From: Sinohyriopsis cumingii
Lineage: Eukaryota; Mollusca; Bivalvia; Unionida; Unionidae
Assembly: GCA_028554795.2 (NCBI GenBank)
Contig: CM068831.1
Location: 67,369,982 to 67,433,981, forward strand
DNA: 64,000 nucleotides
Direction of reading: 5' to 3'
Made by a program: the position numbers and the translations under genes
Notes under the pieces: model-generated
Database searches by the model: none
Seen by the model: the letters and a program-made list of their open reading frames with translations, nothing else
Told to the model about the DNA's origin: nothing
Part shown: positions 4,617 to 38,104 of the stretch, piece by piece
Numbering within the stretch: the first letter of the stretch is position 1
Layout: the number at the start of each line of letters is the position of its first letter

Positions 4617-4836
4617 ATGGCTTTAGAGTGGCATATATACTCAGCATTGTGTGCATGTGAGTGTGAGACAGAAGGCAAATATCATGTTTCACAATGCCCA
4701 TTTTATTCAGATCGTGAAAACAGATTCCCCACAGGGATTTTCTCAGACGAATTCAGGCGTAATATCTCAACTTGTACCATATGTCATCTCAGCATCTCAG
4801 AGAAGAGCTTCAATCGAAATATCATTCACTAATTAG
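4617..4836 (+). other. Possible LINE C-terminal scrap (Cys-rich tail)
   Basis: A 71-codon frame contains CACECETEGKYHVSQCPFYS. This resembles the C-x-C ... YHxxxxCPFYxD tail of many invertebrate LINE polyproteins. The segment recurs in B (about 22912-23140) and D (about 57040-57260), and in partial form three times in C (around 43700 and 44620). The frame is not preserved in all copies, so it is a relic if the identification is right. Confidence 0.3.
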
Positions 4837-5927
4837 TACTTTTCACACCATATTTCTTTCACCCGTATGTGATATATATTTGATATTTTTCCAATGTCGT
4901 CTTGAAAAGTATTTATACTATGGATTCTTCATTTTCTCGCTTTTTCGTTTCACTGTTACAATTGTGACTGTTGAACCATTGTTATGCAAGTGTAGGTTTA
5001 TGCTCCACATTTCCAAAACTCCCATATCATGGACATTGCAATAGATAACATCATCAGCAGTATTCATATACTCAAAATATTAGCAGCCGGTATCTTTGTC
5101 ATTCATAACTTATTTTCGCTTCTAGTGAATGGATAACAAAATGACCATTATGATTGCAATGCCTCAATCACAATGCATGTCAAAAATGATGCATACGAGA
5201 TAAAACTATGAAAGAGCTCACCAGCAGAAGATGGAGATTTTAACTATTCACGTTTGGTTTTGATTATATTATGAGCCCAAAGTTGATGATATTACGTGTC
5301 CAAATAAGGCAGAAAAGAATGAGGCGACAAGTTGTATTTCCAAACCTAGTTAATATTTTTCCCCATCATTTATCTTATAACACTAAATGTTGCCTCTTGT
5401 GAAGTTCACAGTCTCTTTCCAAGCTCCATATTTCACTCCAAATCTAATGTATTTAAATACCAGTGATCTAGTATGGAACTTAATATTATATAACAAACAA
5501 AATGTCATCCAAAGTAGTTTAGGAAGGCTAAGAGATAGTACATATAGCTCTGTAGGTTTCGTTTCTATGAAAATATGAAATTATTAATTCTGGTGTATAT
5601 TGAACTAGTTTTTCGCCGCAGTGTTTAGTTATGTTATTTCTGTATGCCAGAACTTAATTTCCTATTTGAGTATCACTATATTCGTAGTGAGGTTAATTTG
5701 TACAACTCACTGTGTTAGTTGGGCTGTAATTCGTCTCATTGGAGAAAAAAATACTTTCTCGTCTAGAACAATAGTTATATTTTATGCTGACAAAGTCTAT
5801 TCGGACGAATTTATAGTGGATTGTTTACATCCGTCTTATCATTCTTACTCAGTGAAATCAATGCCTTGAACTGGATAATTGTTATTCAAGCAACACCCCC
5901 TTTTTGTGTATTCCCACTTATGTTTCT

Positions 5928-5935
5928 TATAAATA
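5928..5935 (+). promoter_or_regulatory. TATA box of FReD gene A
   Basis: TATAAATA lies 61 bp upstream of the first ATG, which places a start site near 5958 and leaves a short leader. The same position reads TATACATA in unit B (24245-24252) and AATAAATA in unit D (about 58352-58359). Only copy A keeps the canonical box. Confidence 0.55.
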
Positions 5936-5996
5936 TGGACAGCCCTCTTAAACATTTCCACATCTCGCTATACCCTAGAAAAATCCTTAACTGAGA

Positions 5997-6785
5997 ATGT
6001 TTTGTTCAGTGTTCTTTACCATGACAATGGTTCGCTTATTCTTCGCTTTCCTGACGTTCTCTAAATTGCTTACAAGCGGACATCCTCAAATTAATTGCGG
6101 AAACGTCACTTCATCTATATGCCAAAATGTCTCTTTTGGAAAACCAATTGACTGCCAGGACATTTACCAGATGGGTTTTACAAAGACTGGAGGCTACATT
6201 ATTTATCCCAAAGGACATACTAATGGTATCTACGTTCGATGTGACATGCGTACAGCCGGTGGAAGATGGACTGTCATTCAGAGAAGAATCAGCGGAGATG
6301 TTGATTTCTTTCGTGAGTGGATTGATTATAAAGAGGGTTTTGGTGATCCAAATGGAAACATGTGGCTCGGAAATGACAATATACATGACCTCACGGCTCA
6401 GGCCGATTACCAGCTGCATATAAACATGGCTGTTTCAAATACAAATACCAGCTTTGCCATGTATGATACTTTCTCGGTTGGAGACGAAAGTAGTGGATAT
6501 CGTCTCATCATAAAAGGCTACAGTGGAACAGCAGGCGACTCTTTATCTTATCATTCTGATATGAAATTTAGCACCAAAGATTGGGACAACGACAAAACCA
6601 ATTCAACAAATTGTGCCAGTGTTTGCAAATCCGGTTGGTGGTACAATACTTGCCATACTTCAAACTTAAATGGAATCTACGGATCCACCAATCATGCAGA
6701 AGGAATAAATTGGTATACATATGCCGGATATCAAACATCCATGATAAATGCAGACATGAAAATAAGGAGAAAAGTTTCACAGTAA
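5997..6785 (+). CDS. Secreted fibrinogen-related (FReD) lectin, copy A
   Basis: This is a single-exon gene of 262 codons. An N-terminal hydrophobic stretch (residues about 12-27) acts as a signal peptide. Met9 has the better start context (ACCATG) and may be the real start. A full fibrinogen C-terminal domain follows, about residues 50-260. Family landmarks are all present: DC at 52-53, IYVRCDMRTAGGRWTVIQRR at 78-97, WLGNDNIH at 123-130, GYSGTAGD at 174-181, the calcium-site region FSTKDWDND at 191-199, Cys206/Cys219 around GWWY, NLNGIYG at 223-229 and DMKIRR at 253-258. There is no collagen stalk or coiled coil between signal and domain. Such proteins are soluble recognition lectins of the ficolin/FREP type that bind acetylated or other glycans in molluscan immunity. 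The actual ligand is unknown. Residue 46 is Ser where B and D have Cys. The gene looks intact and expressible. Confidence 0.93.
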   Translation: MFCSVFFTMTMVRLFFAFLTFSKLLTSGHPQINCGNVTSSICQNVSFGKPIDCQDIYQMGFTKTGGYIIYPKGHTNGIYVRCDMRTAGGRWTVIQRRISGDVDFFREWIDYKEGFGDPNGNMWLGNDNIHDLTAQADYQLHINMAVSNTNTSFAMYDTFSVGDESSGYRLIIKGYSGTAGDSLSYHSDMKFSTKDWDNDKTNSTNCASVCKSGWWYNTCHTSNLNGIYGSTNHAEGINWYTYAGYQTSMINADMKIRRKVSQ

Positions 6786-6816
6786 GAATGATACAAAATT
6801 ATAAAGATGTCGCGGG

Positions 6817-6822
6817 AATAAA
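6817..6822 (+). terminator. Polyadenylation signal of FReD gene A
   Basis: AATAAA lies 32 bp past the stop codon. It is conserved at 25134-25139 in B and 59241-59246 in D, so the 3' UTR is very short in all copies. Confidence 0.55.
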
Positions 6823-7400
6823 AAATATTTGTACAAATAGGGTAAAGCAAAAAATAATGGTTCATATTGATTCGTGTTAATTGCGACTTTCGCAATAGAC
6901 CGCTTTAGTTATTTCAATATTCCTTTTTCATAAAGGGACGCAGTTATGATCAATTTATAGAACCTTTTAATTTTGCTGTCCCTATTGCATTTGAAACGGA
7001 TGCAGTTGTAATTCCTTTGTTTGTCTGAATGGAGATAGTTTAAAATTAATATGTATATTTTATTGAAAGCATGATACTACATTTATATTTTGTTTGTTTT
7101 GTTTTCTTATTATTATTCCCAAATTTCAATTTCACTATTTTGATGCTAATAGCAATAAACAGAACATGCCTTACATTTACAATAGCAAACAAAATCCAGG
7201 TTCCCTCCCCTCCCATACCGACTTAACGGATTGATCAAATGTTATAGAAACGTTTTGCATATTAATATATCTATATCAATTATTATCGCAAGTTGAAACT
7301 CTTTCTGAATGGCAACGAAATTCCCTGTTCTAATAATTGGTTTACACATGCATGAAAACGTACAATCGTGAGTCCACGATCCGAATAAGAATAATATATG

Positions 7401-7521
<121 letters not shown>

Positions 7522-8247
7522 CAACAAGCACCTTCCTTAGCATCTCAGTTAAAAATATTGTTATGTATTGCAAAATGTGGCAAAATATTACATTTTAAGG
7601 AATGATAAAAGATAATATTCATCCATATGTTCTGTGCTGCATAAGTATGGGTGTAAAACATTGTTTCGTACAAGCAATAAAGCATGAGCAGCTTAGGTTC
7701 TTTTGTTGGGGAATGGTTGCTGTGTTTAGACTCCTGAGAGTTTTTAAAGGAAAATTAAGAGGACTTAGGAGACAATCGTTTTCCTGGAGTCGAACCTTTC
7801 GATTGATGTCCTTGATTCATTCGGAGCCAGTGACCTTAATTGTAACGTCACAGAAAGTTACTATATTAGGTAAAATCAGACCCATATGACTCTTTGGCAT
7901 ATTCGAGTGCATTGCTAACTGGGAAAATCAACGAAGAATATGTAATACAATATACAAAAAATACCATTTCATCATTTATGAAAGAAGACAAATAAAATAG
8001 AAAAGGAACAAAAAATATGAAAATTATCAAATCCAGAAATAATGTCAAGTACCGGAATATTTACAACGACACTAAAATGCAGTCCAGTATACAACATTGA
8101 TCGTCTTTCTCAGTTAATCAAGATGTTCAAAGTTATAAATTTCACACAAGAATAAATATGTTATTATACCTTGCGCAGATTCTGTATTTAAATCTCCGAA
8201 ATTCCTAAAGTGTCATGAACTTCAGTATCACTGGCTGGGCGCATGCA

Positions 8248-8507
8248 AACTTTCACAGTTGCTATATAAACCTTTTGTTGCACTAACACAGTAATCATAT
8301 TTGTTGCTGTTTTATCTTTTGTAGCAAACAAGTTTTCTTGCATGACGATTGACCCAAATCTAGTAGAACGCCCCAATTGCTTTTACGGTAGCCATATAAA
8401 CCTTTGCTGCACTAGCAGAGTAATCGTATTCGTTGCTGTTTTATCTTCGGAAGCAAAGAAAAGTTCTTACAGGGTGATTTATCCAATATCATGTAGAACA
8501 AACCAAT
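8248..8507. repeat. 130 bp direct duplication inside the inverted FReD relic
   Basis: Two adjacent copies of about 130 bp share the block around TATAAACCTT, CAGTAATC and GTTGCTGTTTTATC. The duplication is also present in units B and D (from about 26490 and 60520), so it is older than the unit duplications. It covers the end of the minus-strand FReD relic. Confidence 0.75.
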
Positions 8508-9560
8508 CGTGAATGGATCCGGAATAATTATTCCATTTCAAATGAATTCACGAGAGTTTCACTTGTTTTTCTACATTTGTCGCCAGACACAGTGATCTAT
8601 GACGCATCATCGGCACGTACTGATGACATTGGCAGTCGATTTCAGGGTTATTCTAAACTGGCATAATCTATATTTGATCCTCTTGTAAATCAATGATTGT
8701 ACTCTATACCACAATTTGCCATCTAAATGTTTAGTATATACGTTATCAGCCCAAGAACGATATTCTCGATCAAAGCTATTGTTGTAAGAGTGCGAAATTT
8801 CACAAACGCATAGTACGCATGTCAGGACCTGTCTCGCCTAAAGAAGTTCTAATATTTTCTACCGATAGAACTTCTATTTATTGAAGATACAAGTAAAGAA
8901 AAATTAATTTAGAACTTCCGTAGGAAACAAAAATCTAAGACTTATAAACAAGGGGAATAAACATGTATACGTATTGATTGCACAAAGAACCGTATTTTAT
9001 ATGTTACATCGGCAATTTTACAACGTATATTTGGCTTGGATTGGTATTTCATGCATGTATACGCAATTGAAGGTCACGTTATGATCCTTCATACCCTAAG
9101 TACAATTTGGTATTATTATTTTTTTATTAAGTAGGCGTAAAGTATCACTGGAGAAATATAATATTTGGCAATATTATAAACAAAATACTTTATTACAAAA
9201 TTTTGTTCTAGATCAGTAATCGATCTGTAGGAGGAGGAATATGGTTCTGAGAACCACGGCCCTTCTTATAATCTATTCAGTCATGAAAGAACTCAACATC
9301 ACTGTTGACGCTTCTTATGAACGAATATCCGTCCTCCACCAGTAGTATCGATGTCACAGCTAGCGTAGATGCCGTTACGATCCCACGGTGGATAAATGAA
9401 GTAGACGCCTATCCGGGTAATTCCTATCTCGCACACGTCATATCAGTCTCCTGGTTTTCAAAGCAGACATTGTGCATTGTAGGAGTGGCTCTTTTTGGTT
9501 CTGCCAGTCTTAACAGTTGCACATGCAAGGACAATAGTTTTGTGTATTTCTGCTCAGAAA
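8255..9560 (-). pseudogene. Inverted broken FReD gene, unit A
   Basis: On the minus strand about 9560-9215 reads NVCFENQ, GVYFIYP, DRNGIYASCDIDTTGGG and then a decayed FFHDW-IDY-like segment. This parallels residues 42-117 of the intact gene, with several frameshifts and stops. About 500 bp without visible homology follows. The domain then resumes at about 8690-8255: QFRITL, a DDAS..ITVSG block matching DESSGYRLIIKGYSG, and F-TKD followed by YDYCVS matching the calcium-site and first Cys. The order and orientation of the pieces are right for one decayed gene of a more distant paralogue. The N-terminal part is convincing. The C-terminal part is weaker. Confidence 0.7.
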
Positions 9561-12500
9561 CAATGGTGTTATCAACCGGTTGGAGAGGACAAAACTGTTT
9601 CCTTGTTTCAGTGAATATGACAATGATACGGAATGACCATTCTAGTCGATACTTGAATAGAGTTATTAATCCAAGGCAATATGTATGTTTTATTCTGTTT
9701 CATGTTCATCACAGTTTTCCAACTATAATAAGGATAGTTTTCCAACTATATAAAGGATAGCTGTAAATTTCCTCACTCCAGTAAGATTCGTTTCTCATTC
9801 GTAACTCATTAATTAAGTAGAAGCATAAATTAAGAGAGTTCTGTCATTCAGTTCCGTGTGCATAGTCTAATTAGATGTAGCTGTAAGGTCGCTAAAGCAG
9901 CCATCAACAACTTGGTTTGTCTTCGAAGACCCAATATGACTTTACCATCTTCTTGTCATATAATGACGTTCGTTCAGACAAGTAATTTAAGTTCATCAGC
10001 CTATCGGCACCCCCAATTATGCACCAACATACCTTGATAATTATCTCAAAGACGCATACATTATTTTATGTGGTTGAGATTATGCCACTTGATGCCGTTC
10101 TATTGTTAATACACTTGGAAGTGAAGTTTGTATAGCTCAATGCATGTCAATGACCGCTGAGTACAAGAAAGGGACTGTTATTTTCTCGATTGAATTATGA
10201 CAAGTGTTTAAGAGTCCATTAAGTATATAATCTCAAATCTATCTAGGTAGCTTTTCACCCAGTTTTTATATTTGTTCTTGCTTTGGACGATTTCATCCTT
10301 TTGGTTGGAAAACACAGCGAATTAGTTTAATTGTGATCGTCGTTTGTTTCATATCAAGGACATCATCTTTTGCTTGTTTTAGCTCGGATAGCTCGACGCA
10401 CGTGGTCTATTAAAATGAAGATCGGGTATCTCTCAGATTACGAATGATTATAATTTGTCTGAAAGGAACATTGAGCCCGCCAAGGAAATGCTGCATCTTA
10501 GTTTGAAGGTCTTGAAAGACACTTACAATTATTAATACTTTAGCTGGACCCCGTCTGTAAATCCCTCAACGTTTAAAGATCGTCTGCTAAATTTTATCCA
10601 CATCAAAATTCTTCTTTGTGTACAAAATTGAAGCAGGTATCATTTGAATGGGGGAAGAGTATCATCTCTTTTATACGTATTTCATATGCTTAGCACCTAC
10701 ATCAACAGCCGCGAATAACCATATTTTGTCTGTTACTCACTTGAACTAGGTAATATATTGCTATTTAAATGTATGCAGCAGTGCCCATGCGATTGTTTGA
10801 CAATCAAACTAAGATAGGGGATAAGAAACATTTAAATGCCTCAAGACAATGTTTTCTTTATACTAAGGGAGGTGACGTCATTACAAAAACTTCATTTTAG
10901 TTGGAATAGTTGGCAGCCGTTGATTTGGTTTATACTAAGTTAGGGTTATCTGTGTATCTGACACGTCTACATTACTATTACAGGAACTAATTACGAACTT
11001 AAGGCTACGTTTTGTACTGATTGATTTTAAAAATGACTCATGAATATCTGACTCAGTTTCTTCTTTCAACTCTGATCGAAAAATTATTATCTTTACGAAA
11101 CATTCAGAAAGCTAAAATACTCAAAAGCCCACGAATACCTATCCCTACATAAATATCGCAATCAAATACAGTCTGATATCAAACAGGGATATACTCAGAA
11201 ATTGCAAGAATATGGTCGTGTACCACGGTTATTCAGAATTTACCATATGCGCATGTCCCATTTTGGAACCCTTGGTGGTTGTGATCCCCTTTTTCAGTGT
11301 AAGGTTCACTTCAGCTCCTTGTTAATTGATCAATATCACAAGTATAATGGACCTACCATTATTTTTCGTGGATGGGATGAGTGTGTCAGAATAATAGATA
11401 AAGCTAAGGCCATCCCGTGCAAGGAGAGTTTATGTCACGGTAGGTAATATTGTTAAAGGCGATTTGATCTGGGACGTGTGTGAATCTATGTCAGCAATGG
11501 AGTTATTGGACAACGGTTATTATGAGGTCCTATAGAAAAATATTCCTTTTTGCAAAATATATTCTAAGGCGAATGAGTCAGTTGAATATGAATCTTGTTT
11601 ACTCTTTTCATATTTCCAGCACTGCAATTTCCAAGTTCGGTCCAGAAACTGGTAAAAAAAACAGGTTCTTTTTGGGCTCAATGAATTGACGTCTGCACTA
11701 GCAGACTTGGAGAGAATGCTGTTGATTTTTTAACAGGCGCTTGCACTGGGCCCGTAACTGAATAAAAACAATATTCTCTTTGATCTTTGTTGTAGCATAG
11801 AATTGAAATACATTTAGACATAACTATCTGTATTCTTTTATCTTCAAATATTAACTGTTCATCATCTATTTACTTCAAAGAGAACACAGAACATCAGCTC
11901 CCGGCGTAAGATCCAACGAAAGGTCCTGATCTACGTCGCTCAAAATTACATCACAGTTTACGTAAAAATGTTTATCTAGAATGTGAAACGCCAGGACGTT
12001 TCTTTCCATGTAAAGATATACATGTACGCAAAGATCATAAATATATAAGTAAAGCTTTCGACAGCTCTGTGGTGGTGATGGTGGTGGTGGTGGTGGTGTG
12101 TGTGTGCGTGTGTATTTATCATTATAGATGACAAAATGTTAGTCTCCACAAGTAGTTTCATAACGAATACGTTCTTGTTGAAAGACGTTTAAATATGGAC
12201 AGTAAATCAAGATGACAATGGCGAAGGTGATACATATTGATTTATTTAAGATATCCTGATTTTTAAATAGTGTGATGACATATTTGGCGTTATAGCACCT
12301 CTTGAAAAAGAAAGAAACTATATACGTCACCGTTCTTGAAATGAACATAGAGCAAGCACAATTAATAGAATGGTAAATGAAAGCATATCGAACTTAATGC
12401 AGAACACAAATTCTGCTGCACATCATTCATTTGATTCGTTTGGTAACCAATATTTTGGTAACAAAGATACAAATAATACCAATTTAATTTCTTATTGACA

Positions 12501-13130
12501 GCTTTTTGTGTAATGACGTCTTTGTAGTCTGAAGGCAACAATGTTTATTCTTAATCGCTTTAGGGCATGTTAGAGACATACTTAGTAAAGATCGAGGAAT
12601 GTATAGAAGGACGAGGTCTTTTTTTACATTTAAGTAGTAAGAACTGACATAGACAAGTTTTTCGAACTACTGATATAAAAGGAAATAAACTTCAACAAGA
12701 ACAAAAATAAGTCGATACTATCACGCTTCCAATAGGTTTGAGCCACTTTTCTTACTAACACAAAGAAAGGATAAACACTGACTCACCTTCAATTCAAACA
12801 GATAAAATGGCGGCCACTTTCATTTGCTGTTGGATAAGTATAAGGATAGTACTAGTCCACGTTCCATGCAGTGTATCAATACTTCAAGCAAACGTTAGAA
12901 GCGACACCCTAAAAAATAAAAATGTTGGTCTACATTCTGTATAACTTTCTGAAAAACAAACAATACTACCACCATCGAGGCGAACATATCACTTAAACAC
13001 TATCCATGTATTTCAGTGCAAAATAAAAAAATATCACCATGTCCAATACTTCACAACGTGACTACTTTACTTGCTAGTGTATTAATGAACTCTCTAAAAT
13101 AACCATATCCCTGACATTGTTCCTTCAGCA
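9561..13130. other. Unit A spacer without recognisable gene
   Basis: The spacer is conserved with B (27790-30900) and D (61800 to the window end). Short frames are shared by the copies: a minus-strand frame with LKQAKD-VLDMK near 10400 (also 28502-28720 and 62503-62721), and a plus-strand frame near 11100-11440. None resembles a family I know. The minus-strand frame lies upstream of the inverted FReD relic and could be a leftover of its 5' part, but I cannot show this. A GGT/GT microsatellite sits at 12068-12112. Confidence 0.5.
12068..12112. repeat. GGT/GT compound microsatellite
   Basis: A short run of GGT triplets passes into GT repeats. It is found only in unit A; B and D have unique sequence here. 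Confidence 0.9.
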
Positions 13131-13630
13131 TCTCACTTACTACTAATTAAATGAGAACAATATGCAAGACATCAGGACATGATTATAACAAGTTGACAAT
13201 ACATTACTAATGTAAGCATTATTCAACAGAATAAGTACTGAGAGACACCATAATGACAGAGCTGTAGAAACAGATTCACAAGAACAGAAGAAAGATTTTA
13301 TGAAGCTTAAGACGTGTTTAACCGAGATTCGGTATTTGATCTACTACAATCTACGTCATTCAATCGACTTTACAAAGTCGCATAATATTGAATTTTACAT
13401 ATATATATGTATATTTAAAAATAACAACAAAAGAAAAAAGGTGAAAGACGATGAATGATTACAATACATTATTTAATGGCCTGGACAAACAACATCGTAG
13501 CAAACACTACACTTTGCAAAGTTTTCAGCAGCAAATTAAAAACGAAGAAATATAGCCATAAACCTGATGAAGCTGAACAAATTAATGGCTAGATCTATAG
13601 AAACAACTTTCAGTCTATCCATTCATTTTT

Positions 13631-13739
13631 AGACTGGATTCATGTAGTCAAAATGGAAAAGGATGTCACATTCAAACAATTAACAGACTGGATTCATGTA
13701 GTCAAAATGCAAAAGGATGTCACATTCAAACAATTAACA
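13631..13739. repeat. 54 bp perfect-spaced tandem duplication
   Basis: Two adjacent copies of a 54 bp segment beginning AGACTGGATTCATGTAGTC differ at one base. Unit C has a single copy (from about 45296), so the duplication arose after the A/C split. Confidence 0.9.
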
Positions 13740-14104
13740 GCACAGTAAAAGCCACCAAAGTAAAACATACATATGATTTGGTCATCTACGTTAATTATCG
13801 AATTATCAGTGATATAAGAGAGGGGCACTATCTTTTATGACTTAATCTTTCGATGTAACTTACTTTTGTGACATTTGTAACTGTTTCGACATATCCGACC
13901 ATCAAGCAAGTCTGATTCAGCAAATCGTCACATCAGGTTAACACTTTTGTCAAGGAAATAAGCGGAAATAACTTCAAAGAGACGCCATCTGAAGTCTACT
14001 TTATTGTCTTTTATTAACAACTGCTGTCATTATTCCGGCTTTGTCCCTATTGCCATTGACCAGCAAATGGAACCTATACTCGCATACATCTCCCTTTACA
14101 TACA

Positions 14105-15010
14105 TGTACATAGGAGTACTTCATGTGGGCCGAATACAACACTTGCAATAGGCAGCCATACCTTGGAGACATGCCAACCAGAACAGTCTTCTCGGTACCA
14201 TTCTATATGCAGTTGGAACTATAACATATTTCTTTCTGTTTTCATACCTCATGTGCATCCCAGTGATACATCTTTCCACATCTATGGCCAGCTCAAGTAA
14301 AGTTTGCAGGGCGCATCAGGATAGTCTTTGAAACATTACAGAGCGTTGGATTGCTGACTATTTATATGAGTCTATGCCACAGTCCAAAGCTGGAGCCACT
14401 AGTGTGCTAGAGGTGAATTTGGGTCAAGTCTTGAACATTGAGCCAGTACAGGTAATCTAAGTGCTTGTTTACAAGATAAAAATAAAACTATTCATATGCC
14501 TGAATATTCTGATAGATCCTTCATTTCTGCGACATTGTTTATTTCATGCACTCGCTAGGATTCTTGTTTGTGTGACACAAGAAAATGAGGATATGTTTTC
14601 AAATTTACTGCTGGAAATTGCATGCATTTGCTGTATATGCAAAGTTTTGAAATATATTTAAGAAATGTATTGGTCACACCATATCTAGATAAACAAAGGT
14701 AACATATGTTAATGTTGCTCATCTAATTCGTCTTTGTCAAATCAAAGAAACAAAGAAAAGAATACACATGGAGCAAATGGGACTTGCTAGATTGATTGAC
14801 AATCTTCCGAACTATGTAGTGGATGTGGAAGCTAATATCACATATAAGCATGTCCAAATAGAAATGAAACAGGGAGAACCTGACCGCCACTCACTATTTT
14901 GATGTGTGGCATGTTGCCATGGATGTGTTCATAGCACATTGTTTACTACACCAACTGATAATGGAAGAACCCTATTACTTTTACAGGGAAGAGACAAACA
15001 AAGAGCCATA
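14105..15010 (+). mobile_element. Decayed DDE transposase, unit A distal half
   Basis: Frame fragments in order match a DDE transposase-like family that is abundant in fish and invertebrate genomes: the S-TSFHIYGQLK block, GATSVLEVNLGQVLNIEP, then MEQMGLARLID, HVQIEMKQGEPD and HYFDVWHVAMDV. The last block is the family's characteristic D-x-W-H motif. The pieces lie in different frames with stops between them, so it is not functional. In Repbase terms I would place it near Kolobok/IS4EU, from memory and without a search. No terminal repeats were found. Confidence 0.65.
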
Positions 15011-15249
15011 CATCAAATCAGACAGAAGAATATGTTTTAATATGTTTAATTCCATGTGTAAAAATATAATAATTAGATGATTGCCAGGGAACAAGAATTT
15101 TAGGATCTGAGTAACCGAATTTCAAAAAACGTCAATGGGTGTTTCCAACACTGATTTAAAAAAATTGTATAAGTAGTTAAAATTCGTTTAACTTATCAAT
15201 AACATATATGTGACAGATAAATATTGTTCTATCGGAGGAGAGCGAGAAT

Positions 15250-17281
15250 ACTGGGTTGAATACTGCTGTGTACGTAAATAATGTAGTAGAGTTTGTGATT
15301 GAGATATTGGATTCGGAGCAATTTCTCTTCAACCTTGTTTGATTCTGAGCAATATCTCTATTCTACGTTGATACGATTTACGCATATTCAAAATGTAAAC
15401 ATCTTAGGTATGTATTGTGCCACAAAACCTACACAATATCTGGGGAAAATGCACACTAACATAAAATAATGTTATCACTCTAAGAAACAGAGAAATCAAG
15501 CTAAACCAATTTAGTAAATTTCAACAAATAATTTATTTCTCTATAATACACAGGGAATTTTAAATAGAACTTAATGTTGTGAACTAAAATCCGCACAGTT
15601 CTAACCTTTCTATCATAAGTCCAATGGTATAGAGTGCTTTGATTGAATTCCAGGTTTTTAATGTGCTTAAGTATCAATAGTGTTTAATGAGCTGATATAT
15701 CAGCAGTCTTGATGTATCACACTGATATAATCTAAAATATCTTTGAATGAATTCTCAATAATGCAATATAATGATTTAGCCTAAAATGTCAGTGAGCACT
15801 TAGTAATTCCAATGAATAATATAAATAAATAATTCCTCTCAAATTATATCTCATACAACTAAATATAATCTTATTAGACTCATGTTAAAATAGCAAAGAC
15901 CAATTTGTTTACTTCAGAACCCTATATAAAAGTATAAGACGCAATAAGATGTTCAGGATGATGATAATTTTCAATGGAAATTTCCATCAAATTCGTAAAT
16001 ATATTCATGTCTGCTCGCATAAGCTTAAGCAAATAACGAGAACAAATACAATTTCCAAGGAGAAAATCAGAGTACTGAAATCAAATATAACTAAACATTT
16101 TGTTTACAAATGAATATTATCTAAAAGTACAATCTACAATACTGGACATGTGCTATCTATATAATGTATTGCATACAAATGACAGTAGCAATATACAGTC
16201 ATGGGTAAAAACTAAATACACAGTATAGACATACATAAAATGAACTCATATCTTACTTGCTAATCACAGTGTACGTGTAAACCCTTTATTTCACGTGCTC
16301 TTTGTTTCTCGGGTATTAGTGTATCGATTAAACCAGAACAAGTATGATCACTATGAGTACACCAAGGACCGTCCAGATTGTTAAATATAGTTAGCGACGA
16401 AAAGTTGCTTTTTCAATCGTTCACTCAAGTAGTCAACTGTTTAGTTTTTACCGATGTTTCTCATTTATTCTTTATTTCCTTCATGCCTAACTTATTTCTT
16501 CAGCATAACGATCAAATAACTTGAATATAAAGTTGTTTTTATTTTAAAATGCAAAATCTTTACTCATTGATTTTCCTGTAGTAATTGCTACTGAGGCTAT
16601 ATGCTTCATTCAAGAGGAACAAACTTTGGTACTGCTCCTAGTATCATGTGCTGATTCAAGACCTTCTCTTTTGTTTTACCCTCAAATGAGTAAAACAGAA
16701 TTCTCTTACATAGTTTGTTCATTTGTTTCTTTTAACGCTGTAAATTTAAGGCAATGATCTTTGCCTAAAGTGTTGTATGATTTCCACGGTCCAAATGATA
16801 AAATCAAAGCCAAAATTATTTAATTGTCAATTTTCAAATTGACAAATATTGTGAACGATCTTGCTTTATTTTTTTAATGACGATTCTCCTTCATCTATAG
16901 GGTATAAGATGTATTCAGCACATCATATAGGAGCATAAATAGATCCATAAAATGCAGCTAATTAATTTATATATTTCTTTCTTTAGTGTTAGTCAGCTAC
17001 AAAAATTATCATTGAACGCATGTCTCAGTTGAAATACATTATCTCGTCTACAAATTGGAAATGTACATTTAATTAAATCAGTTAATGTAATTTAGCTGGG
17101 ATACTAGTGGCAAAGGATACAATGCAAAAATCGTAGAGCTATTTCAAAATCGTGTTATTTTCATTTTGCATAACATTCTTGTTTGAGTTTGACAACTAAT
17201 TTTTCAAATGCACCAGTTTTTACTTACAATGTAGTAACACTTTTTCCGTGTTGTATTCTATTTTGAATATCTTTTTTTCCT
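15250..17281. other. Unit A distal spacer, no gene seen
   Basis: This AT-rich sequence aligns well with unit C 46850-48812 and partly with B 35090-36290. No protein-like frame, RNA gene or element was recognised. The site TAA at 17197-17199 is the empty target of the transposon carried by unit C. Confidence 0.5.
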
Positions 17282-19769
17282 TTCTGTCGCCTTTAATTGC
17301 ATTAAAGCTAGCACGTAATGCATACGTCTGTTAACCACTTGTGTCCTAAGTGAAACTTTATCTACTATAAACCTTCCTTACAAATCAGAATATTTGGTAT
17401 CATTATAGTGCTACATCTGTCTACCTTTCTATAATACCACCCACTATAGTGTATCATTCTACTGTTGTTTATTTCGTCAATACTATCATGCACCACGCTG
17501 ATATCAAGACACAACATCCCGATCACGGCTTAGACTGCATAGTTTATGTTTTGTACTATTCTTTGAATCTAACATCTTATATCGTTTGGATTTCATCAAT
17601 CCACTCTAAAACGAATGCACAGTTTGCATGTCAATTTCATAGATCGTAGCATGAATTCATTCACTTCTATGTCTTTAACTGTTCTATTTTTTCAAAGTTT
17701 CTTTTTTCTGCTGCCTGGGAATTGTGCTGTTGTTGGTGTTTGCTAAGGTGTTGTTTGTTCCAGACCAGTAATGTATATGCTGATATCATTCATCTTTTTC
17801 CATAACTTGATCCTTTTGTTCAAGTTGAGATTAAAAGGGTCAGAATTTTCCGATATTTTGGATTTCTTTTTTTAAAATTATTTCTTCGACAAAAACATAT
17901 ATCTCTGTTAATCTTCGATTCCAAGGGATTTTATATCATCGAAGGTAAAGTGAATCTTCTGATGATTGTCTTGTCTATCCATTGACTTGAAAAGTAGTTC
18001 TGAATTTCTATCTAGACACATCAACAGCTTCTAAAATTGTTCTGCTCTAGTGGATCTCTTTCTACAGCCATGGAATTGTGCCGGCTTCTCTTGTCATTCT
18101 TTTAAATAATCATTATTATTTATGTATTGTCCACTTGTTTCCTTCATCTCTTGATGTTTTTTAAATCGTTCACTCTAAACTAGTAGTAAGTAAAGTAATC
18201 AAGTAGTAAATTCATGGTCATGGTTTTGTGGGGGGGGGGGCGGTGCTTCTTATTGCAGTTGAAAGTGAGGTAATCATGTAGTGAGGTAAAGAACGATCTG
18301 ATTTGTTTCTTTATTTTACCTTAAGAAATACGGAACGTGGTTCTTTTGTAAGGTATATTAAATTGTGGTGGCTTTGCTTTGTTTATGATACAGTAGTGAG
18401 GAAGGTAGTCAACTATTATTTACGGTGGTGTGCTGCATAGAATGTGGATGGACTGGGGTATTTTTTTACAACAATAAAGTGACTCATTTGGGTAATGTAT
18501 AGTAGAATTAAACAAATAAAAATAAACTACCAGGACTATGTTTTCATGGTATCATTTATGATTCAAATAATTAAGTTCCTCCATGTTTATTTCTAGCACG
18601 GTGACCATCGTAGTTCCTTTGGATTTAAAACATTTATACCACTCAAACAATTGCTTCGAAATAAGTGTTAAAATTTAGATAGCAGATATAAAATAATCAT
18701 TTGCACACTCGTTTCCTCGAGAATCAACTGTAACTAAATTCTATGTAAATTCATATGCTACACGTATGCCTGCAGTGACGAAAATATTTCTGTCACCAAC
18801 ATCATTGTCACTTTGACCTACGTTTGATTATATAACATCTTTCAACATGTAACTTATTTGATTACCTTGCATTAAATTTTCGTGACAACTGGACCTGTAA
18901 TTAGAACTCTCCATGAAATAGATGTTGACCAACGTTATATTCCCGATAACGACACACGCACACGACAGGAGTGGCCTTAGTGTTTACTATTATTTCGACA
19001 CTCACCCCAACAAGAAAAATTACGTCCCATACTCTTGTGATATTCCTTACTGAGCGAGGAATTGAAATCCAACGAGGTTCCCAAATGTTCACAATTTTTG
19101 CATATGCAGTTGATAAAATCTGAATAACAGAGCGAAACATACTTTTTTATTTGGCATGTGCAAAAGAGCACATAGCCAATATAATATATGATTCATACAC
19201 AATGCACTGTTGCATACATGCCTGCATATATGAACAAATAATGGCTATACAAATGTGCGCATAAATCCTCGGAGATGGACAGACAGAAATAGAACTCTAC
19301 AGCGAGAGACGATAGTCTAAGTTGGAATGCATTATCAGCACATTTACCTGGGTGTTTTAGAGTTCTTAAATCTTCCTTTTGGGTAATTGAAGTAATTGGT
19401 ACATACCTGGTTTCTGCCAGTAATAAGGATCAAAATAAATTAAAATGAAACATGTATTTTAGTCCCTGGTTACAAAACAATAAAAGGCAAGATATATGGA
19501 CTGAATTAGGATAATGCCAGATCTCCAAGACCGTGAAGTCAATAAAATAGTTATCACACTGAAAACCGAGTTTTTACAATTCTTTCTTTCAAAACCTGTA
19601 AGCATTAATTGTTAAATTTTTTAACAATTTAATTATTTGTATTTAGCAATCTGAACCATTCGTAAAGATACGCACATATATATTTAAATAAAGAGTATGG
19701 GGGCCAAACTATCCATCTTCAAGCATATTCTTGGCAAGATGTAGAACATTTAGTATCTACATGCGCTTT

Positions 19770-20047
19770 TCACTCGTCCTATACTATCTGCTTTCAAAAC
19801 CACCCAACCATAAGACAATATTGGAGATTCAAATTAATCAAATAAATGAACCATTATATTCACCAGACATTCTAGAATGTTAGTATTATTCAGAAGCAAC
19901 GTTTTCTATGCACCCGTCATATACTATCTGTTTTCAAAACCCCCAAATATCACAGCCATAAGACGATATTGGAGACTCGAATTTTCAAATAAATGAACAA
20001 TTGTATTTACCAGACATTCTAGAATGTTAACATTATTCAGAAGTAAT
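19770..20047. repeat. About 140 bp tandem duplication, unit B only
   Basis: Two imperfect copies share the blocks CATATACTATCTG, CCATAAGAC-ATATTGGAGA and ACATTCTAGAATGTTA. A and D have a single copy at the equivalent place (about 2400-2550 and 53880-54020). Confidence 0.75.
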
Positions 20048-20474
20048 GTGGGGCACATCTCTGATCTTGCAAAGTCTGACTGTATGCTCTGAAGTCGGAG
20101 AGGCATTGATCATTATTCAAAATGTAATAACAAAACCAGTAGCTTCATGTTTGTAATTATTTCCTCTGATAGTACTGTTGACGTGTCACATATACAAAAA
20201 CTACTTACTTCGCATCGATCAAATCAGTTGCTACAACTCTGTAAACTAAACCAACTTTAAAATCATGTAATGATCTCATTTCCTTTACAATTTGTACAGT
20301 AACTTTGTATTGGGAACTTTTATTCATCTCTAATCACCTACCGTTGCTCAATTGGCAAACAACCACATAGATACTGTTCGTGTCAGCAATGTATTCCATA
20401 TCAGAGTGAGCCATATATCAAATTATATTATTCTTGCTGTACAAGGATTAGCTAATTTTAGGTAACCAATGAAA

Positions 20475-21515
20475 TATGTAGAAAGTCTTTTATGCAGTCA
20501 CCTATGGGGTCCTATGACAAATTTCGGTTGCTCAGATAAATTGATAGTTCGCTAATTCCATCAAAGCATGCGCGCTTGTGTCATAGACGAGGAATAGTCA
20601 TCTGAATCATTCCATGTCACCAATGGAGTCAAGCAAGGTTGTGTGTTGGCCCCAATCCCCTTGAGTATGACGTTCTCTGCGGTGCTTACTTATGCTTCCT
20701 GTGACCATGACAGTGGGATTGTATTCGATACCACACTGATGGCAAGATCTTGAATCTATGGAGAGTGCAAGCGAAGACTAAGACATAAAATTACTGTTCG
20801 TGGTCAACTATTTGCCGACGACTGTTACCTGAATGCCTGATCTGAGTCTATGGATCGTTTGTTGTCAGCTTGTAATTATTGCAATTATTATATTGCTTGG
20901 TTTGTGCTGTGAATGATGCAGATCTAAACTGATAAGGGAAGGTGGTGGTTTTATGTTACGGTCCTAATCAATGATAAAACCAACACCAGAATTGCTAAAG
21001 AAAGTGTGGGCTTTTGCAGGCTACGAGCAAACGTGTGGGAGCGAATTCTACAAAGAAGATGAAGGTCTACAAAGCCTCTGTTTTGCCAATCCTGTTATAT
21101 CTTTGCTAAATCGCTATGTTAAGAAGCTTAATCATTTTCACAGTAGGATGTCAGAAGAGCAACTACTTAAGAAGCATTTCTACGTTGAGCTGAAGGAGGG
21201 GAAGTGATCTCAGGGTGGTCAAAAGAAACGTTTCATAGATGCCGTCAAGACATCTTTGAAGCACTTCATCTCTGACCACGAGCCTTGGGATGATCTCGCA
21301 CATGATCCCTCTCCTGGCGCAGTTTCATCCTTATTGGTGCTAAGGACGTTGAACAAATGACAATCGAAGAGGCATGACAGAAGCGCGAGCAAGTTAAATC
21401 TCAGAACTGCAGCACGTCCTGCATTGATCAATCTATCCCAACCTGCACATGCTTCCAAGTGTGACACAGCCTGTAAATAGCAACATTGACCTGATCTCAA
21501 GTATTCACAGACTTC
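20475..21515 (+). mobile_element. LINE reverse-transcriptase remnant, unit B
   Basis: This is the C-terminal half of a non-LTR retrotransposon ORF2. It has TNGVKQGCVLAP, a run up to LFADDC (the FADD catalytic motif), then VKKLNHFH, VELKEGK, KKRFIDAVKTSLKHF and a terminal DLIS block after a decayed zinc-knuckle. A 78-codon open piece remains at 20971-21207, but the whole carries several stops and frame changes. It is inherited with the unit rather than newly inserted. It is more complete than the unit A copy. Confidence 0.85.
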
Positions 21516-24313
21516 TAACCAGTTACTGATATCTTAGTCATCTTCGAACTCAGAGGATGCACAACAAGTTCACTTATAAAAGGGGAAATGTATAACTTAC
21601 CACTGCGCATGAAAACTGCAAAAAGCATAAGTGACTTGTTATTGCTACCTTATAAGTAATAATTGGCCTCCCAACCATTTGTAAAAGCAACCTGAATTCA
21701 AAGCAATAAGGTTAATTGTTTCTTTCTCTATATTCAGCACAACGTACTCTTGGGATAATACAGGAATTTTCTATTCAGTAATACACTTTGATACAAATTA
21801 ATTTGGATCTAGGTTTATCTTGGCATAAAGGTGTTTGAAGGCTAGTTATTTCATACAATCGTTACTTAATACATGTTGTTCAAATTGTGGACAGTATCAA
21901 ATCAACACTATATCGTGCATTTGAAAAAATGTGTTCATTGTTTTTTTGCAGCTTCTTCTTGGAATCTTTTCTTTTTTGTTCCTCCTTAAATTTCAGAATA
22001 AGCCATAGATTTTTCTGTCAACAGTTCTGCAATAAAAAGAAAGGCTATTAAGGGAACATATGCAATCAATAGGCTCTCAGTAAGACATGAGGTGAACACT
22101 TAAGATATTCTAAAAAATTTCATTAAACGGACAAAATAACATGATATTATTGTGACATTCTAGAATGCGTGTTAATTTAGATCAAACATTCTGAAATGGT
22201 GTAGTGTTGAGGAATATGGAAAAGTAGTCTTATACGGAAGACAAGTCCATATCATATTTGGTTATAAATACATGGGACTAAACTTCACTCGCACAATTAT
22301 TTGGAAAAAAAGTAAAGGAAGAATACCCATTACACGCAAAGTGTCCAAAAACATGAATAATTGTGTACAATACATTCGCCATATTTGAACTGATATTAAT
22401 ATGATCGCTTTCGCATTAATAGATGCCGCTGATATTTGGCTACAATATTCATAAGCAATTGAAAACGTAAATGGTAAGAGTTTTGCTAGATATGGAATCT
22501 TCCAAGAAAACACGCATACTCCCTGCTGCCACAAGGAGAATACTGACCATGTAAGTCTGTATTTTACCTATTACTGGAAATTAATACTGGATTATGCTGG
22601 ATGGTAATTGATATCCATGGCAATGATATGAAAACTAAAAGTAACTTGATGAACCAGGTAAGTCAAAATGTGTTACAAATTTTAATAGCAAACACTTCCC
22701 ATATGGTTTGGGTTATAATTGGTACGTATAGGCTGTAGGTGATGACAAAGTTGTCCTATTTTACCTATTACTGTAAATGTAGTATTTACCAACTGAAAAT
22801 ATCATAAAGACAATTTAATTCAGAAATGATATTCAACCGTAATCAAATCACATAAAGCATCCCACTACAGTTGCATTACACGTAGCCATTGAGTAACCAA
22901 CGCATCTATTAATGGCTTTAGAGTGGAGTATATATCGAGCATTGTGTGCGTGTGAGTGTGAGACATTGAGACATAAGGCAGATATCATGTTTCACAATGC
23001 CCATTTTATTCAGATCGTGAAAACAGATTCTCCACAGGGATTTTCTCAAACGAATTCAGGCGTAATATCTCAGCTTGCACCATATGTCATTTCAGCATCC
23101 CAGAGAAGAGCTTCAATGGAAATATCATTCACTAATTAGTACTTTTCACACCATATTTCTTTCACCCGTATGTGATATATATTTGATATTTTTCCAATGT
23201 CGTCTTGAAAAGTATTTCTACTATGGATTCTTCACTTTTTCGCTTTTTTCATTTCACTGTTACAATTGTTATTGTTGAATCATTGTGATGCAAGTGTAGG
23301 TTTATGCTCCACATTTCCAAAAATCCAATGTCATGGACATTGCAATAGATAACATCTGCAGCAGTAGGTATATAATCGAAATATTAGCAGCCGTTGTCAT
23401 TGATAACTTATGTTCACTTCTAGTCAATGGATAGCAAAATGACCATTATTTTTCTTTGGTTTTAAATGATTGCAATACCTCAATCACAATGCATGTCAAA
23501 AATGATGTATAATAGATAAAACTATAACAGTGTTCACCAGGAGCAGAAGGAGCTTTTCACTATTCACGTTTCGTTTTGATTATATCATTAGCCCAAAGTT
23601 GACGATATTACGTGTCCAAATAAGGCAGAAAAGAATGAGGCGAAAAGTTGTATTTCAAAACCTAGTTAATACTTTTTTCCCCTTCATTTATCTTATAACA
23701 CTAAATGTTGCCGCTTGTGAAATTCACAGTCGCTCTCCAAGTTCCATATTTCACTCCAAATCTAATGTATTTAAATACGAGGGATTTAGTACGGAACGTA
23801 ATATTATATAGCAAACAAAATGTCATCCAAAGTAGTTTAGGAAGGCCGAGAGAAAGTACATATAGCACTGTAGGTTTCGTTTCTATGAAAACATGAAATT
23901 ATTAGTTCTGGTGTATACTGAACTAGTTTTTAGCTGCAGTTTTTAGTTATGTTATTTCTGTATGCCAGAACTTAATTTTCTATTTGAGTATCACTATATT
24001 CGTAGTGAGGTTAATTTGTACAACTCACTGTGTTAGTTGGGCTGCAATTTGCCTCATTGGAGAAAAGATACTTTCTCCTCTAGAAAAATAGTTATATTTT
24101 ATGCTGACAAAGTCTATTCGGATGAATTTATAGTCGACTGTTTACATCCGTCTCAGCATTCTTACCCAATGAAATCAATGCGTCGAACTGGATAATTATT
24201 ATTCAAGCAACACCCCCTTTTTCTCTATTCCCACTTAAGTTTCTTATACATATGGACAGCCCTCTTCAACATTTCCACATCCAGCTATACGCTAGAACAA
24301 TCCTTAACTGAGA

Positions 24314-25102
24314 ATGTTTTGTTCAGTGTTCTTTACCATGACAATGGTTCGCTTATTCTTCGCTTTCCCGACGTTCTCTAAATTGCTTACAAGCGGACAT
24401 CCTCATATTAACTGTGGAAACGTCACTTCATCTACATGCCAAAATGTCTGTTTTGGAAAACCAATTGACTGCCAGGACATTTACCAAATGGGTTTTACAA
24501 AGACTGGAGGCTACATTATTTATCCCAAAGGACATACTAATGGTATCTACGTTCGATGTGACATGCGTACAGCCGGTGGAAGATGGACTGTCATTCAGAG
24601 AAGAATCAGCGGAGATGTTGATTTCTTTCGTGAGTGGATTGATTATAAAGAGGGTTTTGGTGATCCAAATGGAAACATGTGGCTCGGAAATGACAATATA
24701 CATGACCTCACGGCTCAGGCCGATTACCAGCTGCATATAAACTTGGCTGTTTCAAATACAAGTACCAGGTTTGCCATGTATGATACTTTCTCGGTTGGAG
24801 ACGAAAGTAGTGGATATCGTCTCATCGTAAAAGGCTACAGTGGAACAGCAGGCGACTCTTTCTCTTATCATTCTGATATGAAATTTAGCACCAAAGATTG
24901 GGACAACGACAAAACCAATTCAACAGATTGTGCCAGTTCTTGCAAATCCGGTTGGTGGTACAATGCTTGCCGATATTCAAACTTAAATGGAATCTACGGA
25001 TCCACCAATCGTGAAGAAGGAATATATTGGTCTCCATATGCCTCAGATCAAACATCCATGATATATGCAGACATGAAAATAAGGAGAAAAATTTCACAGT
25101 AA
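24314..25102 (+). CDS. Secreted fibrinogen-related (FReD) lectin, copy B
   Basis: This single-exon gene has 262 codons, the same length and layout as copy A: signal peptide, eight Cys in the secreted part including Cys46, and a full FReD domain with the calcium-site region FSTKDWDND and GWWYNAC. Codons 59-143 are identical in DNA to copy A. Codons 144-262 differ from A at 19 codons, every one changing the amino acid by my hand count. Several differences are charge changes: H220R, H233R, A234E and Y245D. The TATA box is weakened to TATACATA. L19P falls inside the signal peptide core and might reduce secretion. The frame is intact, so the gene may encode a lectin with a different binding preference from copy A. 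Confidence 0.92.
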   Translation: MFCSVFFTMTMVRLFFAFPTFSKLLTSGHPHINCGNVTSSTCQNVCFGKPIDCQDIYQMGFTKTGGYIIYPKGHTNGIYVRCDMRTAGGRWTVIQRRISGDVDFFREWIDYKEGFGDPNGNMWLGNDNIHDLTAQADYQLHINLAVSNTSTRFAMYDTFSVGDESSGYRLIVKGYSGTAGDSFSYHSDMKFSTKDWDNDKTNSTDCASSCKSGWWYNACRYSNLNGIYGSTNREEGIYWSPYASDQTSMIYADMKIRRKISQ

Positions 25103-25133
25103 GAGTGATGCAAAAGTATTAAGATATCGCGGG

Positions 25134-25139
25134 AATAAA
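25134..25139 (+). terminator. Polyadenylation signal of FReD gene B
   Basis: AATAAA lies 32 bp after the stop, at the same place as in copies A and D. Confidence 0.5.
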
Positions 25140-25651
25140 AAATATTTGTACAAATAGGGTAAAGCAGCTTGAAGTATGTCCATATAGATTGATGTTATTT
25201 GAAACTTTCGCAGCACTTCGCTTTAGTCATATGAATATTCCTTCTTCATAAAGGGACGCAGGTATAATTAATTTGTGGAACCATTTAACTTTGCTGTCCC
25301 TATTGCATTTGAAACGGATGCAGTTGTAATTCCTTTGTTTGTCTGAATGGAGATAGATTAAAATTAATAAGTATATTTTATTGAAAGTATGATTCTACAT
25401 TTTCATTTTGTTTGTTTTGTTTTCTTATTATTATTCGCAATTTGTACTTTGAAAATTTTGATGTTAATTGCAAAAAATATAATATGCGCTACATATACGA
25501 TTGCAAATAACATCCTAGTTCCCTCCACTCCCATACCCACCTGACGGATTGATCAAATGTTATTGAAATGTTTTGCATATTTATATATCTATGTCCATTG
25601 GCAACGAAATTCCCTGTCCTATTAATGTATTTACACAATCATGAAAACTTG

Positions 25652-25652
<1 letters not shown>

Positions 25653-25727
<75 letters not shown>
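25653..25727. repeat. TA microsatellite, unit B
   Basis: About 37 TA units stand at the position orthologous to the unit A run. Confidence 0.97.

Positions 25728-25731
<4 letters not shown>

Positions 25732-37143: not shown

Positions 37144-38104
<961 letters not shown>

What the first reader, a model, noticed from the sequence alone, without database searches (positions are those of the whole stretch)
5997..25102. FReD paralogues with a frozen core and a hypervariable ligand-pocket end
Between copies A and B, codons 59-143 (255 bp) are identical, although the flanking DNA differs by roughly 10 percent or more. Codons 144-262 have 19 amino-acid-changing codons and no synonymous ones by hand count. 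Fourteen of these lie in codons 205-260, which in known FReD structures hold the ligand pocket and calcium site. Copy D repeats the pattern with different residues at the same positions. This is what gene conversion of a scaffold plus diversifying selection on the binding face would leave, as proposed for mollusc FREPs.
Basis: partly seen in the sequence, partly recalled or inferred. Interest (0 to 1): 0.8.

Follow-up and report, generated by a model that had tools for sequence, protein, structure and literature searches.

The report
Mussel lectin array, diversified binding pockets
A freshwater mussel carries a tandem row of about twenty nearly identical lectin genes whose frame is conserved while natural selection has repeatedly changed residues that line the expected sugar-binding pocket, which looks like a ready-made set of recognition proteins with different targets.

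Summary
A and B are identical over codons 59-143 and differ by 19 amino-acid-changing and 0 synonymous codons over 144-262, 14 of them in 205-260. They belong to a ~20-copy array of intronless, single-domain FReDs on one contig, in what two mitogenomes indicate is a male freshwater mussel. Over 20 copies, omega is 0.18-0.20 for codons 59-143 and 3.4-3.6 for 205-262 (p<=2.7e-5); M8 beats M8a by 2dlnL 135-141. Positively selected codons include 218, 233, 234 and 245, which align with cis-peptide and acetyl-pocket residues of FIBCD1. The calcium Asp pair 197/199 is invariant. An older related group has omega 0.28 there. Gene conversion of the scaffold is not supported: silent divergence in the core is not significantly lower, and no globally significant tract overlaps the gene, though power is low. 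No Ig domain was found, so FREP in the strict sense does not fit. Copy D has a stop at codon 228. Ligands and an immune role are inference.

The parts
5997..6785 (+). Copy A: intronless FReD gene, 262 codons, hydrophobic N-terminus (signal-peptide-like, inferred by eye) plus one fibrinogen C domain
   Evidence: ORF; PF00147 E 1.9e-67, residues 51-257; model matches FIBCD1 4m7f at TM 0.90-0.91 normalised by the target
6171..6425 (+). Copy A codons 59-143, conserved core
   Evidence: identical to B; omega 0.18-0.20 over 20 copies
6585..6593 (+). Copy A codons 197-199: holds the Asp pair (197, 199) aligned with calcium ligands Asp393/Asp395 of FIBCD1, invariant in 20 of 20 copies
6609..6782 (+). 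Copy A codons 205-262, diversified ligand-binding end
   Evidence: omega 3.4-3.6 over 20 copies; 14 of 58 sites with posterior of dN>dS at least 0.9
6624..6626 (+). Copy A codon 210, aligned with pocket Tyr405 of FIBCD1; Cys here, Tyr in 15 of 20 copies
6648..6650 (+). Copy A codon 218, aligned with cis-peptide Asn413; 5 residues over 20 copies, positively selected
6693..6698 (+). Copy A codons 233-234, aligned with pocket Tyr431 and Ala432; 9 and 5 residues over 20 copies, positively selected
6729..6731 (+). Copy A codon 245, aligned with pocket Trp443; Y, H, D, R over 20 copies, positively selected
24314..25102 (+). Copy B: second intact FReD gene
   Evidence: 96.5% identical to A
24488..24742 (+). 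Copy B codons 59-143, identical to A
24926..25099 (+). Copy B codons 205-262, diversified end
58421..59209 (+). Copy D: third FReD copy, premature stop, probable pseudogene
59102..59104 (+). Copy D codon 228, TAA where 18 of 20 copies have TAC
3207..10429 (.). Tandem duplication block around A, matching 21419-28642 at 85.5%; its 3207-7399 part matches 55542-59792 at 88.4%
21144..30008 (.). Tandem duplication block around B, matching 55267-64000 at 92.4%

Best explanation
This is a young tandem array of about 20 genes for secreted, single-domain FReD lectins in a freshwater mussel. Unequal exchange of large units multiplied the gene (inferred from the block structure). Purifying selection keeps the scaffold, the calcium Asp pair and the pocket disulfide. 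Positive selection for new ligand specificities repeatedly replaces the residues lining the S1 acetyl pocket and its rim (218, 220, 221, 233, 234, 240, 241, 245, with 201 and 209 beside the calcium loop). Each copy thus presents a different pocket on nearly the same frame: 16 distinct five-residue pockets in the 18 copies without a stop, of which only one keeps the full TL5A/FIBCD1-type set. Shown by computation: the array, the contrast in selection, the alignment of selected sites with the pocket. Inferred: secretion, glycan ligands, and immune or mucosal recognition of microbes as the driver (about 0.55). No expression or binding data were available.
For: Array: 20 full 789-bp copies, the other 19 at 94-97% identity to A, plus one gapped copy at 91%. 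Selection: pN/pS 0.17, 0.87 and 2.37 for 59-143, 144-204, 205-262; omega 0.18-0.20 and 3.4-3.6; M8 over M8a 2dlnL 141 (gene tree) and 135 (codons 144-262 on their own tree); minimum mutation count in 205-262 71 replacement to 9 silent, expected 18.4 silent, p=0.006, without a tree; neutral simulation with an independent genealogy per codon, 0 of 2000 reach the observed pN. Pocket: 4 of 7 FIBCD1 S1 positions are among the 9 sites at NEB>0.95 inside the domain, P=5.6e-5 over codons 51-257 and 5.9e-4 over 144-257. Codon 233 encodes nine residues, all with third base T. Internal control: 9 open copies of an older related group, with four-fold divergence 0.35 against 0.02 here, have omega 0.28 over 205-257, His220 in 9 of 9 and Tyr/Phe at 233 in 9 of 9.
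Against: The first 200 bases after the gene differ by 0.11-0.15 between copies, as much as pN in 205-262 (0.099). Had the C-terminal end that neutral rate, pN would not exceed neutrality; but silent sites in the same codons give 0.042 (bootstrap CI 0.016-0.075). The neutral simulation's ratio statistic alone is only p=0.017-0.024 at the gene-wide silent rate. M7/M8 and the site posteriors assume one tree and fixed relative branch lengths, while recombination is detectable around the genes (PHI p=0.0099 for -1500 to 1300, the floor of 100 permutations; 0.24 inside the coding region). Not all selected sites are in the pocket: 46 (NEB 0.998), and by the second method 27, 204, 205, 251 and 260, lie elsewhere, and 6 of 58 sites in codons 1-58 reach 0.9. 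Of the pocket positions, 219 is invariant and 210 is not among the selected sites. The model's confidence is modest in residues 201-250 (pLDDT 65-78); pocket positions come from a sequence alignment with FIBCD1, not from measured distances. Two of 20 copies have a stop, and three (L034, L046, L053) have lost the first ATG, so not all are surely expressed.
Confidence: 0.7

Rival explanations
1. One reading: gene conversion keeps copying a scaffold segment (codons 59-143) between genes while selection diversifies the pocket end.
For: A and B are byte-identical over 255 bp between more diverged DNA. Four-fold divergence in the core is about half of the rest (0.012 against 0.027-0.029). Recombination exists in the region (PHI -1500 to 1300, p 0.0099). 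Two pairs have their longest silent identity run over the gene start into the core (-64 to 286, -46 to 286; uncorrected P 0.015 and 0.020).
Against: NG silent divergence in the core does not differ significantly from the rest, nor do four-fold sites. None of the 3 globally significant tracts overlaps the gene. The core also has omega about 0.16 in the older related group, so constraint alone can freeze it. The test has little power inside the gene (36 silent polymorphic columns).
Confidence: 0.1
2. Same selection, different purpose: the pockets diversify for particle capture in feeding mucus, attachment of larvae to fish, or gamete recognition, not for defence.
For: Nothing in the window shows expression or ligands. 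That unionid larvae live on fish and that bivalves sort food with mucosal lectins is recalled, not tested here.
Against: Lectins with this pocket (TL5A, ficolins, FIBCD1) are described as immune recognition proteins (passages). That does not decide the point for this array.
Confidence: 0.3
3. Relaxed constraint: the pocket end is decaying in a redundant array and no positive selection is needed.
For: Stops in D and L034 (2 of 20), both at codon 228, and first ATG lost in L034, L046 and L053; replacement divergence in 205-262 is about that of the 3' flank.
Against: pN exceeds pS in the same codons (bootstrap P 0.0024); omega 3.4-3.6 with p at most 2.7e-5. Cys206, Trp215, Cys219, Asn225, Gly236 and Trp239 stay invariant in the 39 sequences of A1 between hypervariable neighbours, and 18 of 20 frames are open from codon 2 to the end.
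Confidence: 0.06
4. Targeted mutagenesis, like a diversity-generating retroelement or deaminase hotspots, produces the variability at fixed codons.
For: At codons 201, 218, 221, 233, 241 and 245 only the first two bases vary and the third is fixed.
Against: A fixed third base is expected when silent divergence is a few percent. Codons 209, 234 and 240 also vary at the third base. No reverse transcriptase or template was looked for in the genome.
Confidence: 0.02

Closest known systems
Small FReDs (sFReDs) of Biomphalaria glabrata (PMC7588048)
   Same: FBG domain without Ig domains; many paralogues; the paper reports FBG domains of sFReDs as more diverse than those of FREPs and suggests a broader carbohydrate range (passages).
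   Different: The term 'positive selection' occurs 0 times there. The mussel copies are a recent, near-identical tandem array with change concentrated at the pocket end.
FREPs of Biomphalaria (FREP3 and others)
   Same: Mollusc proteins with a C-terminal FBG domain and a diversified repertoire.
   Different: FREPs carry one or two Ig domains; their FBG domains are relatively conserved compared with the Ig domains, and variants come from gene conversion and point mutation. Here no Ig domain was found and the FBG pocket end is the variable part.
FIBCD1, tachylectin 5A, ficolins
   Same: Same fold (TM normalised by target 0.90-0.91 to FIBCD1 4m7f, 0.89 to TL5A), calcium Asp pair, pocket disulfide.
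   Different: The S1 pocket residues are said to be conserved in FIBCD1, TL5A, L- and M-ficolin apart from Trp443 (the sentence is cut in the passage seen). A later paper says changes at S1 make it inactive in ficolin-2, which uses other sites, so loss of S1 has a precedent. In this array S1 varies from copy to copy, and codon 233 (Tyr431) has nine states.
Anopheles gambiae FREP family (PMC1242226)
   Same: Tandem expansion of FBG genes; some domains have changed residues at the binding site, read as slightly different binding sites (passages).
   Different: No positive-selection test ('positive selection' occurs 0 times); that the mosquito copies are older and more diverged is recalled.

Membership tests
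FReD / fibrinogen C-terminal domain (PF00147) | Match over the curated cut-off covering the domain | tested here: met
   227.8 bits against cut-off 22, profile 3-219 of 221
FReD / fibrinogen C-terminal domain (PF00147) | FReD fold | tested here: met
   AlphaFold model, mean pLDDT 76; best Foldseek hits tenascins, FIBCD1, ficolins
Mollusc FREP (strict sense) | One or two N-terminal Ig domains | tested here: not met
   ORF A holds only PF00147. 10 of the 19 + strand stop-to-stop frames of 45 aa or more at 1500-5990 were sent to Pfam: 0 matches at E<=0.1. Done for copy A only; shorter exons, and exons further upstream, were not searched.
sFReD as defined for Biomphalaria | Complete FBG domain, start and stop codon, no Ig domain | tested here: met
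   copy A, (with the limits of the row above)
Acetyl-binding lectin (TL5A / ficolin / FIBCD1 type) | Calcium-ligand aspartates | tested here: met
   197 and 199 invariant in 20 of 20 copies and in 39 of 39 aligned FReDs of the genome
Acetyl-binding lectin (TL5A / ficolin / FIBCD1 type) | S1 pocket Tyr405, His415, Tyr431, Ala432, Trp/Tyr443 | tested here: not met
   Y-H-Y-[A/G]-[Y/W] in 2 of 20 copies (L033 and L034, which has a stop); A is C-H-H-A-Y, B is C-R-R-E-D
Acetyl-binding lectin (TL5A / ficolin / FIBCD1 type) | Calcium-dependent binding of acetylated sugars | not testable with these tools
   needs protein
Gene family under diversifying selection at the binding site | omega above 1 at sites that map to the ligand pocket | tested here: met
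Concerted evolution by gene conversion | Conversion tracts, or reduced silent divergence in the homogenised segment | tested here: inconclusive
   No globally significant tract over the gene; core silent divergence lower but not significantly; low power

The most novel reading that the evidence does not exclude
A germline-encoded repertoire in which one lectin frame has been freed from the canonical acetyl specificity: the S1 pocket, usually the conserved hallmark of acetyl-binding FReD lectins (ficolin-2 being a known exception), has become the hypervariable site, so that a single array offers many different pockets, an invertebrate counterpart to a V-gene cluster with paratope-focused selection.
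Probability: 0.5. Interest if true: 0.75.

Novelty: new variant of a known kind. Interest (0 to 1): 0.6.

Why it matters
How invertebrates without antibodies obtain many specificities is an open question. Here a natural deep-mutational series exists: 18 uninterrupted copies with nearly the same frame and 16 different five-residue pockets, in one genome. They could be expressed side by side on glycan arrays to test directly whether FReD paralogues encode different recognition. The analysis also separates two ideas that the finding joined: the frozen scaffold can be explained without gene conversion.

Tried and rejected
Local gene conversion of codons 59-143: tested on silent sites, not supported but not excluded. 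Relaxed constraint: rejected by omega and by simulation. Octopus or other cephalopod as the source: first guess from genome size, dropped after no molluscan haemocyanin domain was found (whose control rang nowhere, so weak) and two mitogenomes of the unionid kind were found. Older subfamily as a second replicate: of 8 copies (L035-L039, L042-L044) three read with stops (L038, L043, L044) and L037 reads with a shift near codon 200; all 8 were left in and gave omega 0.79, p 0.42 for 205-257, so it decides nothing. In the same call the 51-58 segment failed numerically in both groups (nan). Third M8 run (codons 1-143): not reached, the script hit its time limit after two runs.

Rows dropped before counts: the 20-copy set leaves out the gapped copy L041 (91% identity), the 8 older copies, and the more diverged or partial hits on C8 that one search lists and that were not fetched. 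The older related group used as a control is the 9 open copies among the 30 loci that one search returned; hits with stops or partial hits in the same stretch were not used. Copies in the 20-set are gap-free against A by BLAST coordinates; flank columns with a gap in any of the 20 rows were left out of the conversion test. A1 holds 39 sequences: 18 of the array (D and L034 left out for their stops) and 21 other FReDs of the genome.

No claim is made that pocket-focused selection on FReDs is unpublished; the searches made were made, in one open-access library. Papers: PMC3908420 (passages and section 15), PMC10825690, PMC7588048, PMC12074976, PMC1242226, PMC2429915 and PMC5222514 (passages each); the rest only as search listings.
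Full report
What is there. The window is G000:C8:67369982-67433981 of a 2.9-Gb genome. It holds two intact intronless FReD genes, A (5997-6785) and B (24314-25102), and a third copy D (58421-59209) with a stop at codon 228. Each lies in a large tandem block: A's 3207-10429 matches B's 21419-28642 at 85.5%, and B's 21144-30008 matches D's 55267-64000 at 92.4%. In the genome the same 789-bp gene recurs. Twenty full-length copies were collected (A, B, D and 17 others between 67.08 and 67.76 Mb of the contig; the 19 others are 94-97% identical to A), with one gapped copy at 91% and an older neighbouring subfamily at 84-89%. All 20 were used below unless said. Eighteen have no internal stop; D and L034 stop at codon 228, by TAA and TAG. 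L034, L046 and L053 have no ATG at codon 1; L046 and L053 could start at Met9 or Met11.

The organism. Two mitogenomes are present. C807 has cox2-cox1-cox3-atp6 around a cox1 that lies twice, 15,961 bp apart. C1106 has nad3, a cox2-containing frame of 410 codons, cox1, cox3 and atp6 (genes other than cox1 named by eye). Their COX1 proteins are 70% identical. A second, sex-linked mitogenome with a long cox2 extension is the mark of unionid male mtDNA (PMC5222514, passages). I therefore take the source to be a male freshwater mussel; the species is unknown.

The observation. It is correct to the codon. A and B share codons 59-143 exactly and differ at 19 replacement and 0 synonymous codons in 144-262, 14 of them in 205-260. 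The A-B flank difference is 7-15%.

Selection. Mean pairwise pN/pS (kappa 1) over 20 copies is 0.75 (codons 1-58), 0.17 (59-143), 0.87 (144-204) and 2.37 (205-262). For the last segment the codon bootstrap gives P(pN<=pS)=0.0024; with the two stopped copies left out it is again 0.0024. A self-written MG94 model gives omega 1.00, 0.18, 1.0 and 3.6 on the gene tree, and 0.20 and 3.4 for the core and the end on their own trees; p against omega=1 is at most 1.2e-4 (core) and 2.7e-5 (end). M8 with 7.8% of sites at omega 9.2 beats M7 and M8a by 2dlnL 141; codons 144-262 on their own tree give 135. Two checks do not rest on a tree fitted to these data. The minimum mutation count in 205-262 is 71 replacement to 9 silent where 18.4 silent are expected (p 0.006). 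In neutral simulations with an independent genealogy for every codon, 0 of 2000 reached the observed pN at the gene's own silent rate, and a fraction 0.0030 did at the higher rate 0.08, which approximates the upstream flank; the ratio statistic alone gave 0.0165 and 0.0045.

The frozen core needs no conversion. Silent divergence is similar along the gene (pS 0.048, 0.041, 0.051, 0.042, kappa 1); the core differs from the rest by -0.005, CI -0.032 to 0.024 (kappa 2). Four-fold sites alone are lower in the core (0.012 against 0.027-0.029), but only 3 of 31 and 14 of 61 codons are polymorphic and the CI includes zero. Seven of 190 pairs have an identical core. A GENECONV-like permutation test (longest run per pair, 200 permutations) on 487 silent columns gave 3 significant pairs of 190, all at about -935 to -792; runs reaching into the core (L048-L050, D-L048) had uncorrected P 0.015-0.020 and global P 0.79-0.85. 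Recombination in the wider region is detectable (PHI p 0.0099, the floor of 100 permutations) but not inside the coding region (p 0.24). Silent divergence across the whole ORF (0.02-0.05) is below that of both flanks (0.06-0.10 over the last 1 kb upstream, 0.07-0.15 over the first 300 bp downstream). I cannot explain this; gene-wide conversion and constraint on silent sites both remain possible.

The pocket. In FIBCD1 the acetyl group is held by the backbone NH groups of Cys414 and His415, placed by the Asn413-Cys414 cis-peptide, and by Tyr405, His415, Tyr431 and Trp443 with Ala432 at the base; Asp393, Asp395 and the carbonyls of Ser397 and Asn399 hold calcium (PMC3908420). The HMMER alignment of A with FIBCD1, numbered by me from the Cys401-Cys414 disulfide, puts Tyr405, Asn413, Cys414, His415, Tyr431, Ala432, Trp443 at 210, 218, 219, 220, 233, 234, 245, and the four calcium ligands at 197, 199, 201, 204. 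Sites at NEB>0.95 are 46 in the N-terminal part and 201, 209, 218, 221, 233, 234, 240, 241 and 245 in the domain. Four of the seven pocket positions are among these nine (P=5.6e-5 over codons 51-257; 5.9e-4 within 144-257), five when 220 (NEB 0.92) is counted. A second method (posterior over a dN/dS grid) gives 16 sites at 0.95 or more, five of them pocket positions (218, 220, 233, 234, 245); at 0.9 it gives 14 of 58 sites in 205-262, 3 of 61 in 144-204, 1 of 85 in the core and 6 of 58 in codons 1-58. Codon 233 shows H, R, Y, F, N, S, P, T and V, always NNT. Sixteen distinct five-residue pockets occur among the 18 copies without a stop; only L033 of the 18 keeps Tyr-His-Tyr-Gly-Tyr. Cys206, Cys219, Asp197 and Asp199 are invariant in 39 of 39 FReDs aligned. 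Positions 201 and 204, aligned with the main-chain calcium ligands, do vary.

Internal control. An older related group on the same contig (9 open copies at 65.8-66.3 and 78.7-78.9 Mb; four-fold divergence 0.35 against 0.02) has omega 0.28 for 205-257 and keeps His220 (9 of 9) and Tyr/Phe at 233 (9 of 9), though 218 has 4 states and 245 has 3. Pocket diversification of this strength is therefore a property of the young array, not of the domain in general in this genome.

What it is and does. A single-domain FReD in which no Ig domain was found matches the class called sFReD in Biomphalaria, whose role in defence is called somewhat conjectural there. It does not fit FREPs, whose FBG part is conserved relative to their Ig part. 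The best reading is a secreted lectin repertoire diversified at the pocket by selection. Defence is the likeliest purpose by analogy, but feeding, larval attachment or reproduction are not excluded.

Noticed in passing
L057 (contig C807) and L059 (contig C1106): Two mitogenomes in one assembly with COX1 70% identical; the second has a 410-codon cox2-containing frame. This fits F and M mitotypes of doubly uniparental inheritance, so the individual would be a male unionid mussel.
   Followed up: partly
window 59102-59104 and the same codon of L034: Two copies have a stop at the same codon (228) by different bases, TAA and TAG, where the other 18 read TAC.
   Followed up: no
window 49030-50718, - strand: A 562-codon ORF without a Pfam match between the B and D blocks; that it is a transposon-type protein is a guess.
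   Followed up: no
window 5997-6785 and flanks, 20 copies: Silent divergence in the ORF (0.02-0.05) is lower than in both flanks (0.06-0.15), with a sharp change at the 3' end of the gene; unexplained.
   Followed up: partly
codon 210 of A, B, L045, L052: Cys replaces the pocket Tyr next to the conserved Cys206-Cys219 pair, an extra cysteine that might be free or link chains.
   Followed up: no
window 7404-7519, 25654-25727, 37998-38100: Pure (AT)n runs of 74-116 bp; two lie some 550-620 bp downstream of A and B.
   Followed up: no
G000, many contigs: 127 PF00147 matches listed in the genome (150 of 151 candidates scored), many of them one-exon full domains on several contigs.
   Followed up: partly
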